64,000 nucleotides of DNA from Trichocoleus sp. (lineage in GTDB: Bacteria; Cyanobacteriota; Cyanobacteriia; Elainellales; Elainellaceae), in the NCBI GenBank assembly GCA_036702865.1, contig DATNQD010000043.1:1-64000 (forward strand), read 5' to 3'. Positions 1-62,808 of the stretch are shown in pieces (position 1 is the stretch's first letter; every line of letters starts with the position of its first letter). The notes under the pieces were generated by a model, which made no database searches, was not told where the DNA came from, and saw only the letters and a program-made list of their open reading frames with translations. Made by a program: the position numbers and the translations under genes.

Positions 1-244
1 TCTTTCCAGGTTCTCGGCTCCCGTCGATACCCCTCAAACTCGCTCGCCTGAGCAGTACCTCGTTCACCGCTTTATCAACATATCTAATCCATCCCCACTC
101 TGTCAACCCCTTCACCCAAATCTCTCTCGCAGTTCTGAACAAACTGCTTAACGCTGTGAGCTGACGTTTGGTAATACCAGCCTCTAACTCAGCACTGCTT
201 CCATAGACGGCCATAATTGATGTATAAGTAGTGCGTTCGGGCAT
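1..244 (-). CDS. Unknown protein, N-terminal part, runs off window
   Basis: The reverse strand is open from an ATG at 244 to the window edge (81 codons), and the frame can be followed back to a stop at 292-294. The predicted N-terminus begins MPERTTYTSIMAVYGSSAEL and continues as a mixed, plausibly globular sequence with a Trp-rich stretch near residues 45-55. I do not recognise the family and see no membrane segment. A short open stretch ending just upstream (about 295-375, same strand) also looks protein-like, so this could be a piece of a broken gene. The rest of the gene lies outside the window. Confidence 0.35.
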   Translation of the reverse strand, partial: MPERTTYTSIMAVYGSSAELEAGITKRQLTALSSLFRTAREIWVKGLTEWGWIRYVDKAVNEVLLRRASLRGIDGSREPGK

Positions 245-771
245 GAGCAATTCAGAAACAGGTCCTACGAGGTGAAGGTTGGGTAACGCTTACAGTAAAC
301 CAGGATGCAGCAATTTGTCCTGGATGATTATGTAAATGTGCTTTCCGTCTACCTCTTGTGTGTTGATGCGGTTGATGAAGCAAGCTTTGCACTAAGGTTG
401 GCAATCGGGCATTAAAGGCTTTGCAATTCAATCGTCTGCCTATATCAACTGGTCTTGCTTTGGTAAACGTTCAACTTTATGCATTCCCTTACCTTATCTC
501 GTTCTTCCTTTTCCCTCCCATCTTCAAACAAGTCTAATTAGGATTGTCAAACTTGATTTGGTAAAGCATTGACTCTTCAGCTTAGTACCAGGGGGGATTG
601 CTCTCCCACGTTGCTTGGGCTGTTTTGGAGTTCTGGAGTTAGAAGCAGCAGTGCAGCTTTTCACCGATCGCACTTGACTTTGTTTGAAGTTAGTGAGCTT
701 GGACGAGTTTGGAGAAGACCCAAGCCAAGATACATGAGCACATGGATAATGAGTGAGATTGGGTTAGTTCA
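245..771. other. Non-coding or decayed stretch
   Basis: No gene with a convincing start, ribosome binding site and composition is present. A 30-codon protein-like run on the reverse strand (about 295-375) ends at a stop just ahead of the edge ORF, suggesting decayed coding sequence. The forward open frame at 569-775 has no family resemblance. Confidence 0.4.
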
Positions 772-1155
772 CTAATTATGACAACTGCTACGTTGAAATT
801 TGTCGAAGCAACCAATCTGTAGAAGACTTAACAGTTTAGAGTAATTTTCAGAAGATATTTCTTCACCAAGATAAAGATGAACAGCGAAAGCACCTTCAAG
901 TGTGACAAATTGGTAACCTACATCAGCAGGCGATACGACTGAAATAAATATCAATGGCTCGTCACCGCTGTTCATCACACTATGCACAAATTCGATAGGA
1001 ACGACGACATTTCCAGCAGCGATCGACTTTGTCGTTCCAACTTCGTCCAGATAATAGTCTCTTTTACCGCTCAAATACCGCTCAAAATTGTCCAGGTGTC
1101 TTGCATGTAAGGATGAACGTGCGACAGAATGCCTGACCGGGCGTAACGTACCAGG
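772..1155 (-). pseudogene. Cupin-fold protein remnant
   Basis: The reverse frame is open from a TAG at 1156-1158 to a TAG at 772 but contains no ATG; only a TTG at 1074 could start translation. The translated part resembles the second half of a cupin domain: a turn of the type AAGNVVVPIEFVHSVMNSGDEP, given here only as its key residues (Gly, Pro, His, Asn, Gly-Asp-Glu-Pro). The first cupin motif with the HxH metal ligands is missing. An 11-nt tandem duplication lies at about 1066-1088. A truncated pseudogene is most likely; a very small cupin relative cannot be excluded. Confidence 0.4.
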
Positions 1156-1555
1156 CTACCGCTACAGCATCTCAGATTCTGTAACCGCAGAACGGACAGG
1201 CTCTCTATCCCCGGGGTAAAAGAAATCAGAATTGTGAAATCTATGAGTCATACTCATTGCTATCTTTTACCGCTATTACGAAGATGCAATTATCTCATGA
1301 GTGAATTTAAGGATCGTCTTTCTAATAACTTGTAGCGATTCTTTGCGACGCTGTTCCTAGCGCGGTAGCAACCCCTCAAAAGCTTTATTAGGCTAACTCA
1401 ACATAAAACGAAGGATAGGCAGATGACCTATCCCTTAGAAATTAATGCAATTGTGAGAAAGCGATCGAGTTAGCAGCCTTAAGAAGTTTTTGAAGCAGTT
1501 GTACAGAGACTGAGTGGATCGTGCTCCCTCCCTAGCTTCACTCCTTACCCCGACT
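1075..1555. other. Intergenic, downstream of hemB
   Basis: Apart from the cupin remnant and a terminator-like hairpin at 1404-1433, I see no gene here. Confidence 0.5.
1404..1433 (-). terminator. Rho-independent terminator, probably of hemB
   Basis: On the reverse strand GGATAGG (1427-1433) pairs with CCTATCC (1413-1419) across a 7-nt loop and is followed by a T-rich run containing TTTT. It lies about 120 bp after the hemB stop. Confidence 0.5.
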
Positions 1556-2539
1556 TTAGCTATTCAGCCAGCGGGCAGCATCTTTTGCATGGTAGGTCAG
1601 AATCATATCAGTACCTGCTCGCTTGAAACCCGTTAAGGTTTCCATCACGACGCGCTGTTCATCAACCCAGCCATTTAATGCAGCGGCTTTGATCATGGCA
1701 TACTCGCCAGAAACGTTGTAAGCAGCAACAGGGAGATTGGTGGCTTCCTTGACGCGCCAGATAATATCCATATAAGCCAAGGCAGGCTTAACCATGAGCA
1801 TGTCTGCCCCTTCTGCGATGTCTAGCTCAATTTCTTTGATGGCTTCGCGTCCGTTTGCCGGGTCCATTTGATAGGTACGCCGATCGCCAAACTGAGGTGT
1901 AGATTCTGCCGCATCGCGGAACGGGCCATAGTAAGCCGAGGCGTATTTTGCTGCATAGGACATGATCGGGATATCTTGGAATCCTGCTTCATCAAGACCT
2001 GATCGAATCGCTTGGACGAAGCCGTCCATCATGCCAGAGGGGGCAATAATATCTGCTCCTGCTTTTGCTTGAGCCACTGCCGTTTTCTTCAGCAGTTCTA
2101 GCGTTGGGTCGTTAAGCACTCTTCCACTCAAATCACCCGTTTGCAAATAGCCGCAGTGACCGTGAGAGGTGTATTCGCAAAGGCAAGTGTCATTGATGAC
2201 GATCAGATCAGGGACGGCTTCTTTAACCGCAGTCGTCGCTTTTTGGACAATACCGCAGTCATGCCATGCGCCTGTTGCTTCGGTGTCTTTATCTTCAGGA
2301 ATACCAAATAAAATAATGCCTGGAATACCTAAGTCGTAAACTTCTTTCGCTTCTTCAACGATTTTATCAACCGAAAGCTGATAGACTCCCGGCATCGATC
2401 GCACTTCATTGGCAATCCCGTCTCCCGGAACTGCAAACAATGGGTAGATCAGATCGTTGGTCGTCAGGACATTTTCCTGCACCATGCGACGCAACTGAGG
2501 ATGAGTACGGAGGCGACGAGGGCGATGAGTCGGAAACAT
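1556..2539 (-). CDS. hemB: Delta-aminolevulinic acid dehydratase (porphobilinogen synthase)
   Basis: It condenses two 5-aminolevulinate molecules into porphobilinogen, the first common step of heme, chlorophyll and bilin synthesis in the cytosol. The 327 residues are the normal family length. The Schiff-base lysines are visible in SYAAKYAS (K198) and MVKPALAY (K251). The cysteine cluster [14 protein letters not shown] gives C119, C121 and C129, the triad that binds catalytic zinc in Zn-dependent family members. Start is ATG at 2539. YjbQ lies 142 bp upstream on the same strand, so cotranscription is possible. The identification is secure; metal preference (Zn versus Mg) is inferred from the triad only. 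Confidence 0.97.
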
Positions 2540-2681
2540 AGTGTTAAGGCTGTTCTGAAGTGAGTATCAGGCTTTGCCGATTCTTAACAGTCTAAAACCT
2601 GACCTGTCCCCTCACCCTAACAGAAGTTACAAACTGTAAAAAACAAGTCAATCAAAGTTTACTTAACCCATTCCTGACTCA

Positions 2682-3098
2682 CTACTCCCCCATGATATGA
2701 ACCACTAGTTCGCGGAGATGGGAGTGGCTGCGGTGTTCCCAAACGTAGATTCCCTGCCAGGTTCCCAGAACGAGCCGACCATTCGCAATCGGGATTTGTT
2801 CGGAAGTATGAGTGAGAACGGTACGGATGTGGGCAGGCATATCATCAGGTCCTTCAGTGCTATGAACATAGTCGTAGCCATCTGGTACAAGCTTTGCCAG
2901 GAAGTTTGATAAGTCTACAAGCACATCGGGGTCAGCGTTTTCTTGAATAATTAAGCTGGCAGAAGTATGACGCAGAAAAATGGTACATAGCCCGGTGCGA
3001 ACGCCTGAATCTGCTACGATCGCCGCTACTTTGCTCGTAATTTTATGGAGAGATTTACTATTTGTCTGAACTTTGAGAACCTGCTGGTAGTGTGACAT
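2682..3098 (-). CDS. YjbQ/UPF0047 family protein
   Basis: This is a 138-residue member of the YjbQ family, small trimeric proteins reported to have weak thiamine-phosphate synthase activity; the true role is unsettled. Family signatures are present in order: FLRHTSASL followed by ENADPDV (residues 41-59), HSTEGPDDMPAHIR (79-92) and LGTWQGIYVWEHR (111-123). The conserved His and Glu of these motifs line the presumed active site. Length is typical. It is read in the same direction as hemB, which follows after 142 bp. No signal peptide or membrane segment. Confidence 0.9.
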   Translation of the reverse strand: MSHYQQVLKVQTNSKSLHKITSKVAAIVADSGVRTGLCTIFLRHTSASLIIQENADPDVLVDLSNFLAKLVPDGYDYVHSTEGPDDMPAHIRTVLTHTSEQIPIANGRLVLGTWQGIYVWEHRSHSHLRELVVHIMGE

Positions 3099-3377
3099 TT
3101 ACCCTAAAACTTTGCTTCTGGTACAGGGGAAACCACGATCGAAAAATCCCCTTTTAGAATAGCCTATGGATTCAGAACTCTGACGCTTTAAGTGGTCTTT
3201 TTAGACGAGATAAATCGTTCAGGTTCATCTAATTGGAGGTCGTAAAAGACCTGATTGGGTGATAGTCGGTTGGTCTTTCGAGCAATTACGCTACTGAGGA
3301 ATGTAAATCTTAGAACTTGCAAACTTTAGCAGTAATGTTCTCAGTCTTTGTCAACGCAGCTTTTTCAAGGAAATTGT

Positions 3378-54587: not shown

Positions 54588-54726
54588 AACACTCTACTGA
54601 ACATTCGGCTACCGAATTCTCACAACATAAAGCCAAAGTAACCTAATCAAGTTTAGCACTGGCGGTGGTAGGAAAATGGCAGGGGAAGCAAGTGAGGCAG
54701 CAGCAAGCTTTTATCAGCCAAGCAGG

Positions 54727-54756
54727 TTGACAAATCATACTCATAATGAGTACGCT
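54727..54756 (+). promoter_or_regulatory. Promoter with perfect palindromic operator in the spacer
   Basis: TTGACA (54727-54732) and a weak -10 TACGCT (54751-54756, 18-bp spacer) flank the perfect palindrome TACTCAT-A-ATGAGTA (54738-54752). The site is 31 bp before ATG 54787, suggesting that the start of the peroxiredoxin gene is there and that a redox or metal-sensing regulator binds the spacer. Confidence 0.5.
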
Positions 54757-54786
54757 TTAGAAGTTCAACGAGCACAAGTCAGATTT

Positions 54787-55530
54787 ATGTCAGCTACATT
54801 AACAAACCGTGAAGGACAACGCATCCCGACTGTCACTTTTCGGACCCGCTACAACAATGAGTGGGTGAACGTTACAACAGATGAGTTGTTTAAGGGCAAG
54901 ACTGTGATTGTCTTTTCCTTACCCGGTGCATTTACGCCGACCTGCTCTTCAACTCACCTGCCAGGCTACAACGAGCTGGCAACAGTCTTTCACCAGAATG
55001 GCGTTGATGACATTCTTTGTCTCTCGGTCAATGATGCATTTGTGATGAACGAGTGGGCAAAAGACCAGGAATGTAGCAACTTGAGGCTGATCCCAGACGG
55101 TAACGGAGAATTTACGGAAGGGATGGGCATGTTGGTCGATAAGTCTGATCTGGGGTTTGGCAAGCGTTCGTGGCGTTACTCCATGCTGGTGAAAGATGGC
55201 GTGGTTGACAAAATGTTCATCGAACCGGATGAGCCAGGCGACCCGTTTAAAGTGTCTGATGCTCAGACAATGCTGAACTACATCAACCCTGAAGCCGCAA
55301 AACCAAAGTGCGTTTCCCTGTTCACGAAACCGGGCTGCCCTTTCTGTGCTAAGGCAAAATCGATGTTGACAGAGCGAGGGCTGCAATATGAGGAAATTGT
55401 GCTGGGCAAAGACGCCACAACTCGATCGCTCCGAGCAATCACTCAGGCAACCACTGTCCCTCAAGTATTCATTGACGGTAAGCTTATCGGTGGCTCAGAA
55501 GCGCTGGAAGCCTATCTGGCAGCAGTTTAG
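54787..55530 (+). CDS. Hybrid peroxiredoxin-glutaredoxin
   Basis: 247 residues from ATG 54787; the frame is open to 54676, but a promoter with operator lies inside that stretch and the shorter form matches the usual length of hybrid Prx5-Grx proteins. Peroxiredoxin part (1-170): [15 protein letters not shown] with peroxidatic C53, and Arg130. Glutaredoxin part (174-247): KPGCPFC with C184 and C187, TVPQVFI and GG. It reduces H2O2 and organic or lipid peroxides using glutathione. A lipid-peroxide source (dioxygenase and lipoxygenase) lies 3 kb downstream. Divergent from the two-component operon. Confidence 0.95.
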
Positions 55531-56540: not shown

Positions 56541-57248
56541 TTATGAATTTGCAGGTTTGACTGAAGCAGCCGTTTGTCCAAACAGGATTTTCTTGCCTTC
56601 TTCAGTCATGGTAGGGCTGTTCTTCACGGACTGCCCTTTTTCGTAGGCGCGGACGACTGCTGGTCGAGCGTGGATCTGTTCAAACCAGCGCTTCAGGTTG
56701 GGGAAATCGTCTAAAGTCTGTCGCTGTTGCTGATGCGGCACAACCCAGGGGTAGCAAGCCATATCTGCGATCGAATAGTCGCCTGCCAGGTAGTCTCGTC
56801 CGACAAGCTGCCGTTCCATCACGCCATAAAGCCGATTGGTTTCTCGCACATAGCGATCGATCGCATAAGGAATTTGCTCTGGCGCATACTGAACAAAGTG
56901 ATGATTTTGCCCTGCCATCGGTCCTAAGCCGCCAATCTGCCAGAACAGCCACTCCATTACCGTTTTCCGTCCTCGCGGCTCGGAAGGGAGAAACAAGCCC
57001 GTTTTTTCTGCCAAATAAAGCAGAATGGCGCCCGACTCAAAGACAGAAATGGGTTCGCCGCCATCAGAAGGGTTTTGATCGACGATCGCTGGCATGCGGT
57101 TGTTGGGAGAGATCCGCAGAAATTCTGGCTGGAACTGATCGCCTGCTCCAATATTAATTGGAATGATTTGATAGTCTAGGCTTGCTTCTTCGAGAAAGAT
57201 TGTAATCTTGTGACCGTTGGGCGTTGGCCAATAGTAGAGTTCAATCAT
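56541..57248 (-). CDS. Nu-class glutathione S-transferase (YfcG/YghU-like)
   Basis: 235 residues. N-terminal thioredoxin-like domain begins IELYYWPTPNGHKITIFLEE, the Nu-class signature, with NNRMPAIVD and the glutathione-binding FESGAIL. The helical C-terminal domain has EWLFWQIGGLGPMAGQNHHF and YSIADMACYPWV (key N-cap S-x-x-D). Nu-class enzymes have disulfide reductase and peroxidase-like activity towards organic hydroperoxides. The two oxylipin genes lie 1.1 kb further along on the other strand. Confidence 0.9.
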   Translation of the reverse strand: MIELYYWPTPNGHKITIFLEEASLDYQIIPINIGAGDQFQPEFLRISPNNRMPAIVDQNPSDGGEPISVFESGAILLYLAEKTGLFLPSEPRGRKTVMEWLFWQIGGLGPMAGQNHHFVQYAPEQIPYAIDRYVRETNRLYGVMERQLVGRDYLAGDYSIADMACYPWVVPHQQQRQTLDDFPNLKRWFEQIHARPAVVRAYEKGQSVKNSPTMTEEGKKILFGQTAASVKPANS

Positions 57249-58004: not shown

Positions 58005-58385
58005 GATTCACCGATCGTCTCCAATTATTGTGTCACTCATCGTGTCACTCAACCTAAAGACAACAGAAAGACAGCAGAGAAAACCTAATTTATGTTTCGT
58101 TAAGCAATTGATCGCAGCAAGTTTACAAATGTTTTAAGGCATATTTTAAGGCAAGATTTATTCCTGATTTTGTTGTTTCAGCATCGTTTTGCTGCTTTGT
58201 TGTCGCTTATAAAGGTACTCAAGCGGGTACTGACGTTTTAAAGACGAGTTGATAAAGTAGCAATGATCAGTTTGATCAGTCAGCAAGAATCAGAAGAAAT
58301 TACAGAATTTATTTCACTGGTTCAATCCGTTTTAGTTTGTCAATTTTTGCGAACATTTTTGCAAACAATTTAACAAGGAGAAGTT
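58005..58385. promoter_or_regulatory. 381-bp upstream region of the oxylipin genes
   Basis: No gene. It has short direct repeats that may matter for control: ATTTTAAGGCA-like twice (about 58130-58154), TGATCAGT twice (58264-58271, 58273-58280) and a 12-nt imperfect repeat AWTTTTTGCRAAC twice (about 58342-58367). AAGGAG precedes ATG 58386 by about five bases. No clear -35/-10 pair can be picked with confidence. Confidence 0.45.
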
Positions 58386-60152
58386 ATGCCCGATCGCCAG
58401 TGGCATCAGTTGCCGATTGTGTTAAGTCTCCTGAAACTCATTGATTTTCGGGGAAAGCTACGAAAAGATAATCTGCACGACACTAGGCACCTCCCTGATC
58501 AAAACCAATTACCACATCCTTTGCCTAGCCCCGACAATCGCCATCTAGTCGCACGGACTGCAGATGGTAGCTACAATGATCTGGACTATCCAGAAATGGG
58601 CATGGCTGGAACTCGTTTTGGACGCAATGTACCTTTAGAAGATGCCAAGCTGGATGCTGCAAATCTACTAACGCCAAGTCCACGTTTGGTCAGCAATCGC
58701 CTTCTAGTCCGTCAAGAGTTTGTTCCTGCCAGTTTTCTATCTTTAATGGCGGCTGCCTGGATTCAATTTGAAACGCACGACTGGTTCAGTCATGGCGACA
58801 ATCAGCCTGATCATAAAATTGATATTCCTCTACCCCCCGACGACACCTGGGAACAGGAACAGCATCAGCCGTTAAGAATTGATAGAACGATAGAAGACCC
58901 GACTCGCAACGGAGATACAAATCCGCCTACATTTATCAATCGAGAAACGCACTGGTGGGACGCATCCCAGATTTATGGCAGCAATCAAGCGCGGATCGAT
59001 CAAGTTCGCAGCCACGTGGATGGCAAGTTAAACCTGGGTGAAGATGGGTTAATCCCGATCGATCCTGCAACTGGAGTCGATTTAGTCGGCAATCCGGGAA
59101 CCTGGTGGCTGGGAATGGGGTTGCTCCACACGTTGTTTGTCAAGGAGCATAATTTCGTCTGCGACCAACTGAAGCAGCAATATCCTGACTGGAAAGATGA
59201 TCAGTTGTTTGACCATGCACGTTTAATTATTGCGGCAATCACAGCAAAAATTCATACCGTTGAATGGACTCCGGCAATCCTGCCTCATCCCGTCACAAAA
59301 ATTGCTTTACATGCGAACTGGTGGGGAATTTTAGGGCCTGACTTTAAGCGAGCATTTGGACGGATTGCCGATAGTGAAATTCTCAGCGGCATTGTTGGCT
59401 CATCCAAAACCCATCACGATGCTGCTCATTACTATTTAACTGAGGAGTTCACCTCTGTTTATCGAATGCACCCGCTCATTCCTGATGAGTATGAGTTTCG
59501 TTCTGCCAAGAATGGCAAGCTAATTCAAAAAACTGGATTTCCAGAAATCTTTGATAAGAATGCGCGTCATGTGATGGAAACGATCCCAATGGCGGATCTG
59601 TTCTACTCGTTTGGCATTATGCATCCTGGTGCTGTGACGCTGCACAACTATCCTCAGTTCATGCGAAAACTCAAGCAGGAGAACGGAGAAGCTTTTGATT
59701 TAGCAACGATAGATGTTTTGCGCGATCGAGAGCGAGGTGTGCCCCGTTATCGCAGGTTTCGAGAGCTATTAGGGCGTGGACGCATTCAATCGTTTGAGGA
59801 GATCTGCCCCAATAATCCGCAGTGGGCGAAAGAGTTACGCGAAGTTTACAATGATGATTTAGACAGCGTAGATTTGATGGTCGGTCTTTTTGCAGAAGAT
59901 GTTCCAGAAGGCTTTGGCTTCAGTGATACTGCATTTCGCGTCTTCATTCTCATGGCATCTCGACGGCTCAGGAGCGATCGATTTTTTACCAGAGACTACC
60001 GAGCTGAAGTTTATACTCAGTGGGGTTTAGATTGGATTGAGAAAACCACAATGGCAAACCTGCTGCTGCGGCATTATCCTGATCTTGCCGTTTCATTGAG
60101 AGGGGTCGAGAATGCTTTTGCCCCCTGGCGAAAAGTCGGTTGGGCTGGCTGA
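58386..60152 (+). CDS. Heme fatty-acid dioxygenase, alpha-DOX/cyclooxygenase superfamily
   Basis: 588 residues, full length, no signal peptide. The peroxidase-cyclooxygenase marks are: WIQFETHDW (distal-side His131, Trp133), LLHTLFVKEHNFVCDQL (247-263), AAITAKIHTVEW (about 283-294), ALHANWWGILGP (307-318) and LTEEFTSVYRMHPLIPD (351-367), where Tyr359 would be the radical-forming Tyr and His362 the proximal heme ligand. This closely resembles plant alpha-dioxygenases and cyanobacterial linoleate 10S-dioxygenase. It would insert O2 into a fatty acid to give a hydroperoxide; regiochemistry is not decidable. A lipoxygenase gene follows 144 bp on. Confidence 0.9.
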   Translation: MPDRQWHQLPIVLSLLKLIDFRGKLRKDNLHDTRHLPDQNQLPHPLPSPDNRHLVARTADGSYNDLDYPEMGMAGTRFGRNVPLEDAKLDAANLLTPSPRLVSNRLLVRQEFVPASFLSLMAAAWIQFETHDWFSHGDNQPDHKIDIPLPPDDTWEQEQHQPLRIDRTIEDPTRNGDTNPPTFINRETHWWDASQIYGSNQARIDQVRSHVDGKLNLGEDGLIPIDPATGVDLVGNPGTWWLGMGLLHTLFVKEHNFVCDQLKQQYPDWKDDQLFDHARLIIAAITAKIHTVEWTPAILPHPVTKIALHANWWGILGPDFKRAFGRIADSEILSGIVGSSKTHHDAAHYYLTEEFTSVYRMHPLIPDEYEFRSAKNGKLIQKTGFPEIFDKNARHVMETIPMADLFYSFGIMHPGAVTLHNYPQFMRKLKQENGEAFDLATIDVLRDRERGVPRYRRFRELLGRGRIQSFEEICPNNPQWAKELREVYNDDLDSVDLMVGLFAEDVPEGFGFSDTAFRVFILMASRRLRSDRFFTRDYRAEVYTQWGLDWIEKTTMANLLLRHYPDLAVSLRGVENAFAPWRKVGWAG

Positions 60153-60296
60153 TGAACTGTTAACGGTTGAGTCAAACAAGTGTAACTTTTTATGTTTCTA
60201 ATCTGGAAAAACTGGGAACAGATAAGGTTGTACTTTTTAGCTGCTGCATCACTACTTCGATTCACCTGATTCGCTCATCATTCACAAGGGACAGTT

Positions 60297-62534
60297 ATGG
60301 ATAGCATAAACGCTCCGCTGCAAGGGAATACTTCAGCTGATTTGTATCAGTACAACTACACTTATCTAGAATCGATCGGCATGGTCGAGAAACTGCCTGC
60401 TGGCGAAAGCTTCTCACAGCCCTGGTTGGTGCTGATAGGGAAGCAAGCAATTAAGTTAGCTATCAATACGCTAATCACAAATTTAGGAGATCGAGGCAAA
60501 AAAGGGGTTGAAGATGATGTGCGGGAGTTTTTAGGAAAAACGTTACTCATTACCCTACAAGAAGAGGGAACGTCGTTTAAAGCAACCTTAATTAATGCGC
60601 TCGCAGCGTTGGTGCCTCAGCTTTTGCTGCAAACTGCCCCCACTCCTCAACCCGCAGTGAAAGTTACACGCAGTGTGGAAACGATCGTTCAACCAACAGC
60701 AAGTGCTGCTGGATCTGGCGTTGAGATTTCTAGAAATGTTGAGACAAGCATACAGTCAACAATTCAGCTTTCCCCAGCAGATGCACCGTCAAACACTGTC
60801 GAAGTGACAAAGAGTGTTGAAACCGCACTCGATCAACTGCTGCAAACTGAGGCACCCTCCAATTCAGAAGTACCTCAAGTAGATAAAACGATACAACAGC
60901 CGGTCGTTGCTCCTTCTCCAGAAGAAAAGGCTCAAATCTCCAGTGGAATTGATCGGGCATTGCAGCAGCCTTTACCCGGAATACCCGCGAATGAAGCAGA
61001 TGTTGAAAAATTTATTGCTTCTCGTTTAGTTGAAATTTTAGGACAAAAATTTCTCAAAACCTTTGTCAAAAATATTCTCAAACAGTTAAGAGAGAAGTCA
61101 CCCAAAGGTCACGCTAGCAGTCTGGAAGATTATCTCAATCTGTTTCCCTACATTGGTGCACCAGACGTATCAAAAACATTTCAAAGTGACGACTTTTTCG
61201 CCTATATGCGGGTCGCAGGACCCAATCCTCTCATGATTACCCGCATGACTGCACCCGATCCTCGTTTTCCAGTAACAGAGGAGCAGTATCGATCGATTAT
61301 GGGCGAAGACTCGCTCCAGACCGCGATGCAAGAAGGACGAGTTTATCTGGCAGATTATGGGGTATTGGATGGAGCTTTGAACGGCACTTTTGGCGCTCAT
61401 CCGCCTGTTCAGAAATATGTTTATGCGCCGCTGGCTTTATTCGCAGTTCCAACAGGGGATACAGCCGATCGGGCATTACGTCCGGTTGCGATCCAATGTG
61501 GTCAAAATCCGGCAGAATATCCCATCATTACGCCTGCTACGGGGGCGGATGCCTGGCTAATGGCAAAAACAATTGTCCAGATTGCCGATGTTAACTTCCA
61601 CGAAGCCGTCTCTCACTTTGCCCGCACCCATTTACTGGTGGAACCTTTTGTCATCACCACACATCGACAACTGCCCACTACACATCCTTTATTTAAGCTA
61701 CTCGTGCCGCATTTTCAGGGCACACTCGCAATCAATTTTGCCGCTCATCAATTTCTGATTGCGCCTCAAGGCGGCGTGAACGAGCTGCTATCCTCTACGA
61801 TCGACAATTCTCGCGCTTTGATGGTGAAAGGATTTCAGGGGCGCGGATTCAATGCAGATATGTTGCCACAACGGTTGAAGGACCGTGGCGTTGATGACGA
61901 GAAAGCGTTGCCTGTTTATCCTTATCGGGATGATGGGCTGCTGATCTGGCAAGCAATTCACGATTGGGTTTCTGCCTATTTGAACCTGTATTATCAGTCT
62001 GATGCTGATGTTCAAAAGGATCAGGCACTACAAAATTGGGCAAAAGAACTCGTCTCTTTTGATGGCGGTCGTATCCCAGATTTTGGCGATCGAGGCGATG
62101 GTGCGATCGAAACGCTAGCTTATTTGAGCGATGCCGTCACCATGATCATTTTTACCGGAAGTGCCCAACATGCCGCCGTTAACTTCCCCCAAAACGATAT
62201 CATGAGCTTTGCCCCTGGTATGCCCACCGCAGGTTACTTACCAGCAAAAGCGATCGCCTCAGAAGCCACACAAAAAGATTGGTTGAATCTTCTGCCGCCC
62301 CTCGACCAAGCACAATCGCAATTAAATTTACTGTATCTGCTCGGTTCAGTCCATTTCACTCAGCTGGGAAATTACGACCCCAACTATTTTACTGATCCCA
62401 AGGTGACAGCACCGTTGACAGTACTCCAAAATCGATTGAAAGCAATTGAAGTAACGATCGATCAGCGCAACCAAACTCGCCCTGAGTACAATTACCTTAA
62501 ACCCTCCAACATTCCTCAGAGCATCAATATTTGA
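60297..62534 (+). CDS. Lipoxygenase with repeat-rich insertion
   Basis: 745 residues. N-terminus YQYNYTYLESIGMVEKLP, typical of bacterial lipoxygenases. Residues 118-229 are an insertion with three imperfect V-x-(V/I)-(T/S)-(R/K)-(S/N)-VET units and Gln/Pro/Ala-rich linkers. The catalytic domain (about 236-745) has the full iron set: H435 and H440 in NFHEAVSHFARTH, H625 and N629 in SAQHAAVNF, and the C-terminal Ile745. Ala483 in INFAAH occupies the Coffa site, which favours S hydroperoxides. It oxygenates polyunsaturated fatty acids. Start ATG 60297 with AAGGGA upstream. No signal peptide. Confidence 0.93.
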   Translation: MDSINAPLQGNTSADLYQYNYTYLESIGMVEKLPAGESFSQPWLVLIGKQAIKLAINTLITNLGDRGKKGVEDDVREFLGKTLLITLQEEGTSFKATLINALAALVPQLLLQTAPTPQPAVKVTRSVETIVQPTASAAGSGVEISRNVETSIQSTIQLSPADAPSNTVEVTKSVETALDQLLQTEAPSNSEVPQVDKTIQQPVVAPSPEEKAQISSGIDRALQQPLPGIPANEADVEKFIASRLVEILGQKFLKTFVKNILKQLREKSPKGHASSLEDYLNLFPYIGAPDVSKTFQSDDFFAYMRVAGPNPLMITRMTAPDPRFPVTEEQYRSIMGEDSLQTAMQEGRVYLADYGVLDGALNGTFGAHPPVQKYVYAPLALFAVPTGDTADRALRPVAIQCGQNPAEYPIITPATGADAWLMAKTIVQIADVNFHEAVSHFARTHLLVEPFVITTHRQLPTTHPLFKLLVPHFQGTLAINFAAHQFLIAPQGGVNELLSSTIDNSRALMVKGFQGRGFNADMLPQRLKDRGVDDEKALPVYPYRDDGLLIWQAIHDWVSAYLNLYYQSDADVQKDQALQNWAKELVSFDGGRIPDFGDRGDGAIETLAYLSDAVTMIIFTGSAQHAAVNFPQNDIMSFAPGMPTAGYLPAKAIASEATQKDWLNLLPPLDQAQSQLNLLYLLGSVHFTQLGNYDPNYFTDPKVTAPLTVLQNRLKAIEVTIDQRNQTRPEYNYLKPSNIPQSINI

Positions 62535-62776: not shown

Positions 62777-62808
62777 GTGAACCCTTTCCTTGCAGGGGTT
62801 TACTTTTT
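62777..62808 (+). terminator. Terminator-like hairpin in the AT-rich spacer
   Basis: GTGAACCC (62777-62784) pairs with GGGTTTAC (62796-62803; one G-U pair) across an 11-nt loop and is followed by TTTTT. No gene ends nearby, so it may terminate the oxylipin transcript late or a small RNA. Confidence 0.5.

What the first reader, a model, noticed from the sequence alone, without database searches (positions are those of the whole stretch)
58386..62534. Two-gene oxylipin locus: alpha-DOX-like heme dioxygenase plus lipoxygenase
Two enzymes that use unrelated chemistries (heme tyrosyl radical; non-heme iron) to peroxidise fatty acids sit in tandem 144 bp apart with strong ribosome sites. All catalytic residues visible in each family are intact (His131, Tyr359, His362; His435, His440, His625, Asn629, Ile745). 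In Nostoc a heme 10S-dioxygenase is known to work with an adjacent catalase-related lyase; pairing directly with a lipoxygenase and no catalase-related gene would be a different pathway, such as sequential double oxygenation or alpha-chain shortening followed by lipoxygenase action. The pathway itself is inference.
Basis: partly seen in the sequence, partly recalled or inferred. Interest (0 to 1): 0.82.

Follow-up and report, generated by a model that had tools for sequence, protein, structure and literature searches.

The report
Alpha-dioxygenase beside a lipoxygenase, one cyanobacterium
A cyanobacterium carries side by side the genes for two known kinds of fatty-acid-oxidising enzyme, a plant-type alpha-dioxygenase and a lipoxygenase; both look functional, but the pairing was found in no other cyanobacterial genome examined and is probably a recent, local combination rather than a conserved new pathway.

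Summary
In detail: an intact alpha-dioxygenase (alpha-DOX, 588 aa) and an intact bacterial-type lipoxygenase (LOX, 745 aa) lie in tandem 144 bp apart. The DOX carries the alpha-DOX carboxylate-binding residues His290/Thr295/Arg527 that YRWH (10S-DOX-like) enzymes lack; close relatives are already characterised (CsDOX, CalDOX, LepDOX). One correction: the LOX iron ligands are His440/His445/His625/Asn629/Ile745; His435 is not one. The tandem is not conserved. Among 390 cyanobacterial genomes 22 have alpha-DOX, 76 LOX, 11 both; only this genome has them adjacent. In family relatives the LOX is followed by a P450 gene, which this genome keeps on another contig. Cyanobacterial alpha-DOX genes often sit beside a conserved catalase-like gene; this genome has neither that gene nor any catalase. 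The DOX is closest to Stenomitos, the LOX to its own family, so the pair joins two histories. Known cyanobacterial alpha-DOXs prefer saturated acids and use linoleate poorly, whereas LOX needs polyunsaturated ones, so the likeliest joint role is parallel oxidation of different free fatty acids, not sequential double oxygenation. One looser case (G089) has a different LOX inside an alpha-DOX cluster.

The parts
58386..60152 (+). alpha-dioxygenase gene (588 aa): heme ligands His131 (distal) and His362 (proximal), radical Tyr359, carboxylate-binding His290/Thr295/Arg527, stacking Phe355 and Phe520
   Evidence: residue roles from PMC8720084
60297..62534 (+). bacterial-type lipoxygenase gene (745 aa): iron ligands His440, His445, His625, Asn629, Ile745; Ala483 at the Coffa position (predicts S stereochemistry); N-terminal helical region with a disordered linker (about residues 108-205), no PLAT barrel in the model
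   Evidence: Coffa rule from own knowledge
60153..60296 (+). 144-bp intergenic gap without a promoter-like or terminator-like match on the + strand; compatible with co-transcription but not proof
58373..58385 (+). ribosome-binding region of DOX (AAGGAG, a few bases before ATG)
60284..60296 (+). ribosome-binding region of LOX (AAGGGA, moderate)
62777..62803 (+). terminator-like hairpin (10 pairs, T-rich tail) about 240 bp after LOX; such matches are as frequent in shuffled sequence

Best explanation
Two intact, independent fatty-acid dioxygenases brought together in this lineage and probably transcribed together. Shown by sequence: a true alpha-DOX (heme, tyrosyl radical at Tyr359, substrate held by its carboxylate through His290/Thr295/Arg527), which by family knowledge adds O2 at C2 of free fatty acids to give 2-hydroperoxides that lose CO2 to aldehydes one carbon shorter; and a bacterial-type non-heme iron LOX that adds O2 to the 1,4-pentadiene of polyunsaturated acids, predicted S-configured from Ala483. 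Inferred: they work in parallel on complementary pools of free fatty acids released from membranes, alpha-DOX mainly on saturated and monounsaturated chains, LOX on 18:2/18:3, rather than on each other's products. Inferred downstream: aldehydes may pass to the genome's aldehyde-deformylating oxygenase, and LOX hydroperoxides to the P450 and alpha/beta-hydrolase that are the LOX's ancestral neighbours and now lie on another contig. Inferred history: a DOX of Stenomitos-like ancestry became the neighbour of the family's own LOX after the LOX was separated from its P450.
For: Intact genes and active-site residues; LOX fold model with Z 45-47 to PA-LOX and CspLOX2. DOX groups with Stenomitos at 100% support while the DOX of same-family genomes lie elsewhere; LOX groups with its own family at 99%. 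Four family relatives and G164 have LOX followed within 4-76 bp by the P450; this genome's P450 orthologue (78%) is on contig C88, followed by an alpha/beta hydrolase, and G164 has LOX-P450-alpha/beta hydrolase in a row. One aldehyde-deformylating oxygenase in the genome. Substrate data for cyanobacterial alpha-DOX: saturated acids preferred (PMC8720084), linoleate poorest (PMC9468042). LOX occurs in 11 of 22 alpha-DOX genomes against 65 of 368 others (not corrected for kinship).
Against: No expression data: co-transcription rests on orientation and a 144-bp gap, with scans of low specificity. PMC8720084 reports little difference between mono- and polyunsaturated substrates for CalDOX/LepDOX, so exclusion of 18:2/18:3 is not absolute. 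This enzyme's own specificity is unmeasured. A single-strain tandem may carry no joint function at all.
Confidence: 0.5

Rival explanations
1. Neutral neighbours: two working oxylipin genes placed side by side by genome rearrangement, each serving its own older pathway, with no shared regulation or chemistry.
For: The tandem is seen in this genome only; the two genes have different histories; the flanking GST and modA genes are not generally kept together in relatives, so the region is fluid.
Against: Expected 0.004 times by chance over the 11 genomes with both genes; same strand, short gap, no terminator-like match between; a second cyanobacterium (G089) has another LOX in an alpha-DOX gene cluster.
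Confidence: 0.33
2. Sequential pathway: LOX and alpha-DOX act one after the other on one polyunsaturated chain, giving doubly oxygenated or chain-shortened hydroperoxy aldehydes.
For: Both active sites are intact and the genes adjacent; G089 holds alpha-DOX and a LOX in one cluster.
Against: A cyanobacterial alpha-DOX turns over linoleate poorly (PMC9468042) and LOX cannot use the saturated acids that alpha-DOX prefers; no conserved adjacency.
Confidence: 0.11
3. Assembly error: the contig joins two unrelated loci between DOX and LOX.
For: Draft genome of 90 contigs; the LOX's usual partner P450 is on another contig.
Against: The join would lie in a plain 144-bp gap with no long repeat in the region; the P450 lies inside an 84-kb contig with other genes on both sides, not at a contig end; 100% completeness, 0.94% contamination.
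Confidence: 0.05
4. The heme enzyme is a 10S-dioxygenase of the Nostoc punctiforme type.
For: Same Pfam superfamily.
Against: YRMH not YRWH; His290/Thr295/Arg527 present, which the YRWH enzymes of three family relatives lack; full-length match to plant alpha-DOX.
Confidence: 0.01

Closest known systems
Cyanobacterial alpha-dioxygenases CsDOX (Crocosphaera subtropica), CalDOX (Calothrix parietina), LepDOX (Leptolyngbya sp.)
   Same: Heme ligands, catalytic Tyr, carboxylate-binding His/Thr/Arg, and Thr304 in the substrate channel as reported for CalDOX/LepDOX.
   Different: The passages read mention no genomic partner; here the gene lies beside a LOX. The exact sequences of the three were not aligned here, only homologues from named cyanobacterial genomes.
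Nostoc punctiforme 10S-dioxygenase plus catalase-related hydroperoxide lyase
   Same: A heme fatty-acid dioxygenase next to a second oxylipin enzyme.
   Different: Different subfamily (YRWH, other substrate contacts) and no catalase-type gene in this genome.
Cyanobacterial LOX-P450 gene pairs (two P450 types found here)
   Same: The window LOX groups with LOXs that are followed by a P450.
   Different: Here the P450 is unlinked (contig C88) and the LOX follows an alpha-DOX.
Pseudomonas aeruginosa LOX and CspLOX2 of Cyanothece
   Same: Bacterial LOX fold without PLAT domain, Z about 46-47.
   Different: A long disordered linker in the N-terminal part, seen in this family's LOXs.
Coral catalase-LOX fusion and cyanobacterial catalase-LOX fusions
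   Same: Pairing of a heme enzyme with a LOX.
   Different: There the heme enzyme processes LOX hydroperoxides; here it is itself a dioxygenase.

Membership tests
alpha-dioxygenase | Animal-heme-peroxidase/COX superfamily, full-length similarity to plant alpha-DOX | tested here: met
alpha-dioxygenase | Catalytic Tyr, proximal and distal His | tested here: met
   Tyr359, His362, His131
alpha-dioxygenase | Carboxylate-binding His/Thr/Arg (rice H311, T316, R559) | tested here: met
   His290, Thr295, Arg527
alpha-dioxygenase | 2-hydroperoxide and Cn-1 aldehyde products | not testable with these tools
   needs recombinant enzyme
10S-dioxygenase (Nostoc type) | YRWH motif | tested here: not met
   YRMH at 359-362; YRWH is present in L004-L006
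10S-dioxygenase (Nostoc type) | Adjacent catalase-related lyase | tested here: not met
   none adjacent; no PF00199 match in the genome
lipoxygenase | Iron ligands His, His, His, Asn, C-terminal Ile | tested here: met
   His440, His445, His625, Asn629, Ile745
lipoxygenase | LOX fold | tested here: met
   AF2 model pLDDT above 90 over most of 270-745; Z 47.3, rmsd 2.6, 565 residues to 5ir4
lipoxygenase | Oxygenation of polyunsaturated fatty acids; position and chirality | not testable with these tools
   Ala483 suggests S only by rule
conserved DOX-LOX operon | Adjacency kept across genomes | tested here: not met
   1 of 22 alpha-DOX genomes among 390; 0 of 35 named cyanobacterial loci

The most novel reading that the evidence does not exclude
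The pair forms a two-step pathway in which LOX hydroperoxides of polyunsaturated acids are chain-shortened by alpha-DOX (or the reverse), giving C17 hydroperoxy aldehydes as signals or defence compounds, with G089's alpha-DOX/OYE/di-heme/LOX cluster as an independent version.
Probability: 0.1. Interest if true: 0.65.

Novelty: new member of a known kind. Interest (0 to 1): 0.36.

Why it matters
In the papers found, cyanobacterial alpha-DOXs appear as biocatalysts, without described biological partners. The comparison made here shows what they usually sit beside (a catalase-like gene, a DyP-like peroxidase, OYE plus di-heme cytochromes, once a catalase fusion), and that the window is an exception with a LOX. 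That makes the natural role of bacterial alpha-oxidation testable by gene removal.

Tried and rejected
Conserved tandem: rejected. 10S-DOX identity: rejected. Sorangium alpha-DOX/LOX pair (L055) as independent support: weak, because its LOX-like protein lacks the Asn ligand and C-terminal Ile and has no close homologue (E below 1e-40) in 183 other genomes of its order. Catalase fold of the CATL neighbour: not established; no PDB sequence match, low-confidence model (pLDDT 48), catalases head the fold list only at E 0.13, and profile comparison with the catalase-like CAT10/fusion domain failed. LOX N-terminal part alone: no PDB sequence match. Flank synteny through GST and modA: uninformative. 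The Nostoc 10S-DOX paper was not held. Papers on bacterial alpha-DOX/LOX gene clusters or their double dioxygenation: none found.

Full report
What is there. The window holds two complete genes on the + strand, 58386-60152 (588 aa) and 60297-62534 (745 aa), separated by 144 bp. The first is an animal-heme-peroxidase family protein (Pfam E 1e-112) that aligns end to end with rice and Arabidopsis alpha-dioxygenase (E 6e-118 and 7e-115). The second is a lipoxygenase (Pfam E 1e-62), nearest in the PDB to Enhygromyxa, Pseudomonas and Cyanothece LOX by sequence and by fold (Z 45-47).

Active sites. In the DOX the heme ligands His131 and His362, the radical Tyr359, and the residues that hold the substrate carboxylate in plant alpha-DOX and in CalDOX/LepDOX (His290, Thr295, Arg527; roles in PMC8720084) are all present; the YRWH-type heme dioxygenases of three family relatives have Val/Ala, Ile/Val and Ala there. 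It is therefore an alpha-DOX, not a 10S-DOX. In the LOX the ligands are His440, His445, His625, Asn629 and Ile745. Ala483 sits at the Coffa position, which by the usual rule (own knowledge) predicts S stereochemistry. The model shows helices but no PLAT barrel at the N-terminus and a disordered linker around 108-205, a segment that is long only in this family's LOXs among those aligned.

How common is the pair. In 390 cyanobacterial genomes alpha-DOX was found in 22, LOX (E below 1e-50) in 76, both in 11; only the window's genome has them adjacent. The association of presence is above chance (Fisher p 0.0009) but is not corrected for kinship. In 80 alpha-DOX loci from named genomes none of 35 cyanobacterial ones has a LOX neighbour. 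One complete genome, G089, has an alpha-DOX cluster DOX / catalase-like / OYE / di-heme / di-heme / small protein / LOX, with a LOX only 34% identical to the window's. Sorangium cellulosum So0157-2 has a degenerate LOX-like gene directly after its alpha-DOX, with no close homologue in 183 other genomes of its order.

Usual partners. The LOX orthologues of four family relatives, and of G164, are followed 4-76 bp downstream by a P450-like gene, and six further cyanobacterial LOXs are followed by a second P450 type, in one case after a small intervening gene; the P450 assignment rests on a profile match at 1.5e-7 with ExxR and Cys motifs. The window's genome keeps the P450 orthologue (78%) on contig C88, next to an alpha/beta hydrolase; in G164 LOX, P450 and an alpha/beta hydrolase stand in a row. 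So an ancestral LOX-P450 neighbourhood has been split here. Cyanobacterial alpha-DOX genes have their own recurrent partners: a gene of unassigned family here called CATL in 14 of 35 loci, in several with either DyP-like and catalase-like genes or OYE and di-heme cytochromes. G157 encodes a natural fusion of a catalase-like domain (E 1.7e-5 to catalase) with alpha-DOX. The window's genome has no CATL and no PF00199 catalase at all.

History. The DOX joins Stenomitos DOX (76% identity, support 100) apart from the DOX of same-family genomes; the LOX joins its own family (support 99). GC and GC3 of both genes are within about 1.4 standard deviations of the window mean. The simplest account, which is inference, is a DOX gained from a Stenomitos-like source, or kept where relatives lost it, next to a LOX that had left its P450.

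Most likely function. Each enzyme should be active. Published cyanobacterial alpha-DOXs prefer saturated C12-C16 acids (PMC8720084) and one gave about 430 mg/g aldehyde from palmitate, 260 from oleate and only 30 from linoleate (PMC9468042). LOX requires a 1,4-pentadiene (family knowledge). I therefore favour parallel use of different free fatty acids over sequential double oxygenation; this step is inference from relatives. The genome holds an aldehyde-deformylating oxygenase that could take the aldehydes, and the P450 could take the LOX hydroperoxides; both links are inferred. Co-transcription is plausible from orientation, gap and the lack of a terminator-like match between the genes, but the scans have no predictive strength here.

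Verdict. Observation confirmed with one residue corrected; interpretation partly supported; the enzymes are ordinary members of known families, the tandem is so far one of a kind. The more general finding is the set of recurrent alpha-DOX and LOX gene partners seen across cyanobacteria.

Noticed in passing
L149 (G157) 163-3228, - strand: A 1021-aa natural fusion of a catalase-like domain (PDB catalase E 1.7e-5) to an alpha-DOX: a hint that catalase-type enzymes process alpha-DOX products.
   Followed up: partly
L010, L011, L041, L040, L043, L147, L166 and others: Recurrent alpha-DOX gene cassettes: DOX with a conserved gene of about 305 aa of unassigned family (CATL), followed by two further unknowns, a DyP-like peroxidase and a catalase-like gene, or by OYE and two RoxA-like di-heme cytochromes; OYE and di-heme genes also flank alpha-DOX in Halomonas and Caulobacter.
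   Followed up: partly
L138, L139, L140, L143, L150-L153, L156, L158, L159: LOX genes followed by a P450-like gene of one of two divergent types in eleven cyanobacterial loci; Pfam misses the first type.
   Followed up: partly
L003 3311-4036 (Elainella sp. Prado103, also L043): An aldehyde-deformylating oxygenase gene converges on the alpha-DOX gene, suggesting an alpha-DOX aldehyde to alkane route.
   Followed up: no
L037, L039 (Nitrosomonas): Nitrosomonas alpha-DOX lies inside the cyanobacterial clade, a likely horizontal transfer.
   Followed up: no
L012, L013, L014, L026, L028, L030-L033: A conserved gene of about 300 aa without Pfam match (c7) beside alpha-DOX in nine cyanobacterial loci; its start resembles a P450 N-terminus but no heme Cys motif was seen.
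   Followed up: no
window 54676-55530 and 56541-57248: A peroxiredoxin-glutaredoxin hybrid and a glutathione-dependent disulfide-bond oxidoreductase lie 1-4 kb upstream of DOX; they could reduce lipid hydroperoxides, but no link was tested.
   Followed up: no
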